This document shows, piece by piece, positions 6,117 to 6,306 of a DNA stretch of 15,802 nt. The stretch spans positions 1 to 15,802 of the forward strand of contig JAICIL010000072.1 in the NCBI GenBank assembly GCA_025924435.1. Reading direction: 5' to 3'. A model generated the notes under the pieces. The model worked only from the letters and a program-made list of their open reading frames with translations. It was not told the origin of the DNA and searched no databases. The first letter of the stretch is position 1, and each line of letters opens with the position of its first letter. The translations under genes were made by a program, and so were the position numbers. Origin of the DNA: Chloroflexia bacterium (GTDB lineage: Bacteria; Chloroflexota; Chloroflexia; Thermomicrobiales; JALYUS01).

Positions 6117-6204
6117 GCTCCTATCGGCACGTCCCGGTCGGCCAAACGACCGACCGACGGGTACGCCCACGGGGTACGCGGCCGCGTCGCGCGGCGCGCT
6201 CCCC
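6117..6204 (-). promoter_or_regulatory. Candidate attenuator: two stem-loops plus cysE ribosome site
   Basis: Directly after the leader-peptide stop, GGGG (6204-6201) can pair with CCCC (6174-6171) around a perfect 6-bp stem GCCGCG-CGA-CGCGGC (6195-6181). A second hairpin follows at 6159-6130: GGTCGGTC/GGCCGACC with one G-U pair and a GTTT loop, extended by CGTC/GACG. The Shine-Dalgarno AGGAGC (6122-6117) comes next. No U-tract follows either hairpin, so control may act on translation or through Rho rather than by an intrinsic terminator. A G-run in the leader ORF near 6224-6229 could compete for the CCCC arm. The structures were paired by eye, not computed. Confidence 0.5.
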
Positions 6205-6306
6205 TCACCGACAGAGGCAGCAGCCCCCCGCGTTGCGGAACGCGGCCAGGGGCGGGTAGCGCAACTGAAAGAGCGGCGCGAGCGCCGCCGTCCGCATCGG
6301 CAGCAT
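6205..6306 (-). CDS. Candidate cysteine-sensing leader peptide upstream of cysE-cysS
   Basis: This is a 33-codon ORF beginning MLPMRTAALAPL and ending 'NAGGCCLCR' then TGA. The three Cys codons (TGC TGC CTC TGT) are the 29th, 30th and 32nd of 33. The ATG at 6306 shares its A with the fmdB-like stop (TGATG), so translation should be coupled to that gene. A second in-frame ATG is at 6297. No Shine-Dalgarno of its own is visible, which fits coupling. The stop is followed at once by stem-loops and then cysE. Terminal runs of the codon for the regulated amino acid are the hallmark of attenuation leader peptides, and cysteine-responsive leader ORFs are known in mycobacteria. The placement before a cysteine-synthesis and Cys-tRNA gene pair makes a sensor role likely, though this is inference. 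No membrane or signal features are seen. Confidence 0.68.
   Translation of the reverse strand: MLPMRTAALAPLFQLRYPPLAAFRNAGGCCLCR

What the first reader, a model, noticed from the sequence alone, without database searches (positions are those of the whole stretch)
6117..6306. Cysteine-codon leader peptide and attenuator in front of cysE-cysS
Seen: a 33-codon ORF ending Cys-Cys-Leu-Cys-Arg-stop, its ATG overlapping the previous gene's stop (TGATG), followed at once by a GC stem-loop, a second hairpin and then the cysE ribosome site. Known: leader peptides with runs of the regulated amino acid's codon control biosynthesis genes by ribosome stalling, and cysteine-responsive leader ORFs are described in mycobacteria. 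Inference: a ribosome stalled on the Cys codons when Cys-tRNA is low changes the fold downstream and raises cysE-cysS expression. Because the product CysS itself makes Cys-tRNA, the circuit would be closed.
Basis: partly seen in the sequence, partly recalled or inferred. Interest (0 to 1): 0.88.

Follow-up and report, generated by a model that had tools for sequence, protein, structure and literature searches.

The report
Cysteine-sensing leader peptide before cysE-cysS
A tiny gene ending in cysteine codons sits just in front of the cysteine-making and cysteine-loading genes of this Chloroflexia-like bacterium, and its conservation in relatives suggests that ribosomes pausing on those codons when cysteine runs short switch the genes on.

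Summary
Comparison supports the reading. Of 81 homologous gaps before cysE long enough (or of unknown length), 49 carry Cys-x-Cys-x-stop (one a chance match; reverse strand 0, shuffles 0.9). In genomes without cysE the leader sits directly before cysS (19 of 33 tested). In six genomes outside the class it lies between ispF and cysE or cysS. The Cys frame is open (2 stops in 1,137 codons against 26 and 26 in the other frames) while the peptide body drifts. A covarying hairpin includes the UAG stop; the second Cys codon is UGU in 49 of 49. No Rfam family matched. Most likely a cysteine attenuator acting on translation: leader RNA masks the Shine-Dalgarno site, and a ribosome waiting for Cys-tRNA unmasks it. 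Folding supports this moderately (opening cost 11.2 to 9.6 kcal; shuffled arms gain 0.1), not in every genome, and does not separate a ribosome at the Cys codons from one at the stop (p 0.19). Cysteine leaders are known from mycobacteria and, before cysS, Rhodobacterales; this is a Chloroflexota variant inside an operon, mostly without a U run after the hairpin.

The parts
6306..6677 (-). FmdB-like gene (123 aa) in front of the leader; it has no cysteine
   Evidence: TIGR02605 E 1.9e-5, below cut-off
6205..6306 (-). 33-codon leader ORF; ATG overlaps the fmdB stop (TGATG); ends Cys-Cys-Leu-Cys-Arg-stop
   Evidence: counterparts in relatives
6211..6222 (-). Cys codons 29 (UGC) and 30 (UGC), Leu 31, Cys 32 (UGU): the proposed sensor
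   Evidence: the counterpart of Cys 32 is UGU in 49 of 49 aligned loci
6171..6204 (-). GC hairpin directly after the stop codon; in relatives the hairpin covaries and includes the UAG stop
6129..6166 (-). second hairpin between leader and cysE
   Evidence: fold of this genome; not shown to be conserved
6207..6222 (-). 5' arm of the masking stem: the Cys codon region
   Evidence: fold; duplex search, (p 0.26 for this genome alone)
6115..6128 (-). 3' arm of the masking stem, with the cysE Shine-Dalgarno site AGGAG
5432..6109 (-). cysE, serine O-acetyltransferase
   Evidence: TIGR01172
3993..5435 (-). cysS, cysteine--tRNA ligase
   Evidence: TIGR00435

Best explanation
It is a cysteine-responsive leader-peptide attenuator inside the operon, in front of cysE-cysS (or of cysS alone where cysE is absent). 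Ribosomes reach the leader from the gene before it (overlapping stop and start, or a start inside that gene). With enough Cys-tRNA they pass the Cys codons and leave; leader RNA then pairs with the Shine-Dalgarno site of the next gene and keeps its translation low. When Cys-tRNA is short, a ribosome pauses on the Cys codons (with others queuing behind it in some clades), the pairing arm is covered, and cysE-cysS translation rises. CysS then restores Cys-tRNA, which closes the loop. Shown here: the conserved open frame with terminal Cys codons, the hairpin, the gene association, the complementarity in many genomes. Inferred: pausing, the direction of the response, and action on translation. The confidence given is for a cysteine leader attenuator by either route; the translation route alone is put at about 0.62.
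For: In-frame Cys-x-Cys ORF in 61 of 81 gaps before cysE (reverse 0, shuffles mean 3.2, max 8) and, as a second set, in 19 of 33 gaps before cysS in genomes without cysE (reverse 3, shuffles 0.9, max 4). Stops between the fmdB stop and the Cys codons: 2, 26, 26 in the three frames over 46 loci; 44 of 46 open against at most 39 in 500 shuffles. Of 47 UAGGGG hairpins with a stem of 7 or more in 140 regions, 46 follow at least two Cys codons in the last five. Hairpin: 94.5% of cells paired, 6 of 10 pairs with changes on both sides. All 30 covariance-model hits with E below 1e-4 in 400 Chloroflexota genomes lie before cysE or cysS; 298 genomes of two other phyla give nothing better than 0.0027. 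Masking: the Shine-Dalgarno site pairs with the leader arm more than with shuffled arms (0.67 against 0.43, p 9e-7, n 47); complementarity reaches p 0.05 in 18 of 47 loci singly; consensus folds of two 13-sequence groups show it unprompted, with covariation in one; opening cost 11.2 kcal free, 9.6 with a ribosome at the first Cys codon, 7.5 with a queue, while shuffled arms gain 0.1.
Against: No expression or ribosome data. A ribosome at the stop codon also lowers the opening cost (10.1), and Cys codon against stop codon differs by 0.44 kcal only (p 0.19). In the nearest relative L082 a ribosome at the first Cys codon gives no gain; in this genome alone the complementarity is not significant (p 0.26), and in L129, L134, L136, L143, L148 and L146 it is weaker than in most shuffles (p 0.9 or more). 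With the arm removed, the window's Shine-Dalgarno site and start codon still pair in a local hairpin. In group A4 the arm lies 31-45 nt upstream of the Cys codons, outside one ribosome's footprint. No codon-position bias in the peptide body. 23 of 24 loci with a gap under 120 nt lack the strict motif, and 14 of 33 in the cysS set lack the ORF.
Confidence: 0.82

Rival explanations
1. Same leader peptide, but acting on transcription: the pause controls Rho-dependent termination or RNA polymerase pausing, not translation of cysE. (A sub-case of a leader attenuator; it shares part of the confidence given above.)
For: A strong conserved hairpin follows the stop codon; Rho-dependent control was proposed for actinobacterial cys leaders (PMC1262725, passages); 10 of 49 loci have a U-rich stretch somewhere between hairpin and cysE.
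Against: Only 2 of 49 loci have 5 U in 8 nt right after the hairpin; the terminator scan of the window finds none between leader and cysE (its one minus-strand hit lies inside the leader ORF). Complementarity to the Shine-Dalgarno site exceeds shuffles and covaries in one group.
Confidence: 0.22
2. A structured RNA element (for example a ligand- or tRNA-binding one) in which the UGU and the open frame are incidental.
For: Conservation beyond coding need: UGU 49 of 49, C before it 46 of 49, UAG 47 of 49, GGG after it 49 of 49; no codon-position bias upstream.
Against: The frame is kept open; where the UAG is lost or moved, Cys codons stay in frame and more appear; in L117 (CWGGCM*) and L125 (VCC*) the Cys codons are shifted but still end the ORF; no T-box or other Rfam match at the leader.
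Confidence: 0.08
3. A short functional Cys-x-Cys protein (metal or redox binding) that happens to lie before cysE.
For: Cys-x-Cys is a common metal-binding pattern (recalled).
Against: No sign of residue-level constraint in the body, no NCBIfam match, tied to cysE or cysS and to the hairpin.
Confidence: 0.03
4. Chance ORF.
For: One such ORF in one gap would not prove much.
Confidence: 0.01

Closest known systems
Polycysteine leader ORFs of mycobacteria (Canestrari et al. 2020: paper not held, details recalled; seen as cited in passages of PMC13236596 and PMC9094748; early candidates in passages of PMC4633059)
   Same: Short ORF with Cys codons before cysteine genes; reported to control them by translation attenuation (PMC13236596).
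   Different: Those are leaderless ORFs (title of the cited paper) before other cysteine genes; here the leader sits behind fmdB or ispF, before cysE-cysS, mostly with Cys-x-Cys, and with a conserved hairpin that contains the stop codon.
uORFC-8-2 motif before cysS of Rhodobacterales (PMC8632094, passages)
   Same: uORF with two conserved Cys codons before cysS; ribosome-mediated attenuation proposed.
   Different: There the tandem Cys codons at positions 14-15 lie in the first stem and a U run consistent with an intrinsic terminator follows; here mostly no U run, Cys codons at the end of the ORF, another phylum, inside an operon.
Candidate cys leader peptides of Mycobacterium, Propionibacterium and Bifidobacterium (PMC1262725, passages)
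   Same: Runs of Cys codons near the stop codon and no terminator seen.
   Different: No conserved terminator-like hairpin was seen there; here a conserved hairpin follows, and the genes differ.
T-box before Cys-tRNA synthetase genes of Firmicutes (recalled)
   Same: Also senses the charging of tRNA-Cys (recalled).
   Different: No T-box match in the stretches scanned; here an ORF is the sensor.

Membership tests
Ribosome-mediated leader-peptide attenuators | Short ORF ending in codons of the regulated amino acid before its genes | tested here: met
Ribosome-mediated leader-peptide attenuators | ORF under selection to stay open | tested here: met
   2 stops against 26 and 26
Ribosome-mediated leader-peptide attenuators | Alternative RNA folds set by the ribosome's position | tested here: inconclusive
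   Opening cost falls with a ribosome at the Cys codons, but Cys codon and stop codon are not separated (p 0.19)
Ribosome-mediated leader-peptide attenuators | Expression responds to the amino acid | not testable with these tools
   needs an experiment
Mycobacterial polycysteine leaderless ORFs | ORF begins at the 5' end of a leaderless mRNA | not testable with these tools
   No transcript data; the position behind fmdB or ispF argues against it
Mycobacterial polycysteine leaderless ORFs | Stalled ribosome frees a masked ribosome site (recalled) | tested here: inconclusive
uORFC-8-2 (Rhodobacterales cysS) | U run at the 3' end, as of an intrinsic terminator | tested here: not met
   2 of 49 loci have 5 U in 8 nt right after the hairpin; none in the window
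T-box | Match to the Rfam T-box or any other Rfam family at the leader | tested here: not met
   (window stretch and 28 loci; one tRNA elsewhere in L153)

The most novel reading that the evidence does not exclude
A two-part charging sensor kept across a phylum: a UGU codon that does not vary among the 49 aligned loci, where 57% of the Cys codons of flanking genes are UGC, stands a fixed one codon before a UAG that is locked into a hairpin, so that the hairpin braces or times the ribosome exactly on the wobble-read Cys codon. The RNA would thus read Cys-tRNA charging through one particular codon plus a mechanical brake, and would stay with cysE or cysS as the operon is rearranged.
Probability: 0.2. 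Interest if true: 0.75.

Novelty: new variant of a known kind. Interest (0 to 1): 0.62.

Why it matters
It offers a phylum known largely from metagenomes a defined way to sense cysteine, in which the synthetase that charges tRNA-Cys would be governed by that same charging. Nine searches of an open-licence library, three of them naming Chloroflexi or Chloroflex (36, 68, 96), listed no paper whose title or looked-up passages describe such a leader there. The RNA is short, and its sensor codons, stop hairpin and masking arm can each be changed in a reporter. It also raises a concrete question: why the second Cys codon is always UGU.

Tried and rejected
Rfam at a loose threshold on the window stretch gave two weak plus-strand matches (Xoo2 27.6 bits against a gathering score of 45, mir-1538): chance. 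A pattern scan of 158 class genomes for other sites gave loci for 30 hits; 12 of these were inspected: L212 and L216 are again fmdB-leader with a cysE-like start behind by eye; L206 has a peptide ending LCSCL-stop but no long ORF right behind it and stays unclear; the other 9 look like chance or coding sequence. Many further hits away from cysE got no locus and were not inspected. With the covariance model no genome of the 400 had a second site below 1e-4. Model hits between 1e-4 and 0.01 (14 rows): G001, G020 and G402 are real, G411 is unclear (contig end), two are the opposite strand of real hairpins, eight look like chance or coding. The codon-position test for amino-acid constraint was negative. 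Viral contigs and plasmids: nothing. In one search the cysE start and so the Shine-Dalgarno site was misplaced in L139, L150 and L190; pick the site anew. Rows dropped before counts: L163 (chance match) from the aligned set; L128 from alignment A2 (long loop); L086 and L122 (too little upstream sequence); 3 of 106 cysE genomes of the class (G081, G138, G141) not fetched; 3 of 38 genomes of the order without strong cysE (G007, G019, G047) not fetched.

Full report
WHAT IS THERE. The finding lies on the minus strand. An FmdB-like gene (6677..6306) ends in TGA, which shares bases with the ATG of a 33-codon ORF (6306..6205) ending Cys-Cys-Leu-Cys-Arg-stop; 95 nt lie between it and cysE (start 6109), which overlaps cysS by 4 nt; cysS runs to 3993. 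A hairpin follows the stop directly (6204..6171) and a second one follows that (6166..6129). In the folded leader both lie inside a long stem in which the Gly-Cys-Cys-Leu-Cys-Arg codons pair with the cysE Shine-Dalgarno site (z -2.5).

NEAREST RELATIVE. No whole genome is held for the window. The closest cysE (91%) is in a MAG titled Chloroflexia bacterium GZL_HY_2_bin.18 (L001). Its leader has 32 of 33 residues identical; four silent changes and one that alters a residue.

CLASS-WIDE TEST. In the class of that genome, 106 of 158 genomes have cysE at E 1e-40 or better; the class includes records named Herpetosiphonaceae and Chloroheliaceae (L003, L005). Of the 106, 103 were fetched; with the window and L011 (phylum, outside the class) they make 105 loci. 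Of 81 with a gap of at least 120 nt or of unknown length, 49 contain Cys-x-Cys-x-stop, against 0 on the reverse complement and 0.86 (max 4) in shuffles; of 24 with shorter gaps 1 has it, as does 1 reverse complement. One of the 49 (L163) is a chance match upstream of its true element. A looser test, Cys-x-Cys in an ORF with a stop within 12 codons, gives 61 of 81 (reverse 0, shuffles 3.2, max 8). Several of the 20 that fail keep Cys-x-Cys in frame but have lost the UAG and show further Cys codons in the hairpin (L120, L140, L158, L161, L163, L165).

AN INDEPENDENT SET. In the order of the nearest relative, all 61 genomes have a CysS-like match but only 23 a strong cysE. Of the 38 others, 35 were examined and 33 had a usable gap: 19 carry the Cys-x-Cys ORF directly before cysS (reverse 3, shuffles 0.9, max 4), for example YCSCR-stop in L276 and RCVCS-stop in L310. 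14 do not.

OTHER CLASSES. A covariance model of the Cys codons and hairpin (R1) run on 400 genomes of the phylum gives 30 hits with E below 1e-4, all before cysE or cysS: 24 in the class (22 by the coordinates, plus G115 and G105, seen as L120 and L182) and 6 outside it. In these six the gene in front is ispF and the gene behind is cysE (five) or cysS (one, L248), all confirmed by NCBIfam. G020 (in the order) has fmdB-leader-cysS, and G402 has ispF-leader-cysE by eye. In 298 genomes of two other phyla the best hit is 0.0027. The filters used in these scans lose weak matches, so absence is not shown.

IS IT TRANSLATED? Between the fmdB stop and the Cys codons, 46 loci and 1,137 codons hold 2 stops in the Cys frame and 26 and 26 in the others; 44 of 46 loci are open against at most 39 in 500 shuffles. 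The peptide body shows no codon-position bias (126/128/128 over 31 pairs; 29/21/30 in 9 separate pairs): only the end matters, as expected of an attenuator but also of an RNA element. Start sites differ: an ATG at or just after the fmdB stop in the window and several relatives, a GTG 32 nt inside fmdB in 10 others; which start is used is inferred.

THE RNA. Consensus UGY-NNC-UGU-NNN-UAG-GGG, then a stem. Second Cys codon UGU in 49 of 49 (UGU is 43% of Cys codons in flanking genes), first 35 UGC and 14 UGU, UAG 47 of 49, GGG 49 of 49. Without requiring the second Cys, 50 of 50 UGY-N9-UAGGG sites have UGU there; without requiring the first, 50 of 55 have Cys. These loci are related, so the counts are not independent. 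UAG is the only stop codon ending in G, which the stem needs. The stem covaries (6 of 10 pairs with changes on both sides). Only 2 of 49 have 5 U in 8 nt right after it.

MECHANISM. The Shine-Dalgarno site pairs with leader RNA more than with shuffled leader RNA (0.67 against 0.43, p 9e-7, n 47). The pairing arm lies mainly at one of three places: on the Cys codons (window, L082, L096, L141), about 6-16 nt upstream (most of group A3), or 31-45 nt upstream (group A4). Singly, 18 of 47 loci reach p 0.05; six (L129, L134, L136, L143, L146, L148) are worse than nine shuffles in ten. Consensus folding finds the arm in both groups; covariation is good in A3 (8 cells with changes on both sides, 0 of 500 shuffles) and slight in A4, whose core does not vary (3 cells, 7 of 500). 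Opening the site and start costs 11.2 kcal free, 9.6 and 9.0 with a ribosome at the first or second Cys codon, 10.1 at the stop, 7.5 with a queue; with shuffled arms 7.8 free and a gain of 0.1. Window: 11.3 to 7.5. Against: L082 gains nothing; Cys codon and stop codon differ by 0.44 kcal only (p 0.19); A4 mostly needs a queue; and with the arm removed the window's site still forms a local hairpin. So masking is well supported over the set, the switch only moderately.

COMPARISON. Cysteine leaders are known: candidates in Actinobacteria without terminators (PMC1262725, passages); mycobacterial cases of Canestrari et al. 2020 (paper not held; seen as cited in passages of PMC13236596 and PMC9094748; early candidates in passages of PMC4633059); and uORFC-8-2 before cysS of Rhodobacterales with a U run (PMC8632094, passages). 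Three searches naming Chloroflexi or Chloroflex gave none, two and none papers; of the two, passages of PMC4833913 name Chloroflexi only as a sparsely sampled group, and PMC9413887 (on histidine) was seen in the listing only. The library holds open-licence papers only. No Rfam match in the window stretch at gathering level or in 28 loci apart from one tRNA.

VERDICT. It is a new variant of a known kind; the invariant UGU next to a stop codon held in a hairpin remains unexplained.

Noticed in passing
window 6306-6677 (-): The FmdB-like protein has no cysteine at all (sub-threshold FmdB match), while the FmdB of L253 keeps them.
   Followed up: partly
A2 columns 10-12 (49 loci): The second Cys codon is UGU in 49 of 49 loci and the base before it is C in 46 of 49; unexplained by coding alone.
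   Followed up: partly
L120, L158, L161, L163, L165, L176, L182: Diverged leaders have lost the UAG; the frame runs into the hairpin and picks up more Cys codons, for example CTCRSGCR.
   Followed up: partly
order of G001, lower rows: Most genomes have a second cysS-like gene, 43-51% identical to CysS; possibly the mycothiol ligase MshC (not tested).
   Followed up: no
window 2409-3833 (-): The gene after cysS has an RlmB methyltransferase domain at its C-terminus and about 200 N-terminal residues without a Pfam match.
   Followed up: no
window 8840-8905: Two inverted repeats, seen by eye, lie after the ORF that ends at 8822 (one is ccctccttcggagggaggg).
   Followed up: no
L160, L162, L164, L172, L173, L177 and L174, L178, L179, L183, L185, L186, L189: Loci with an 82-83 nt or overlapping fmdB-cysE junction show no Cys leader; how they control cysE is unknown.
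   Followed up: no
L206, about 1149 on the minus strand: A pattern hit with a peptide ending LCSCL-stop and no long ORF right behind it.
   Followed up: no
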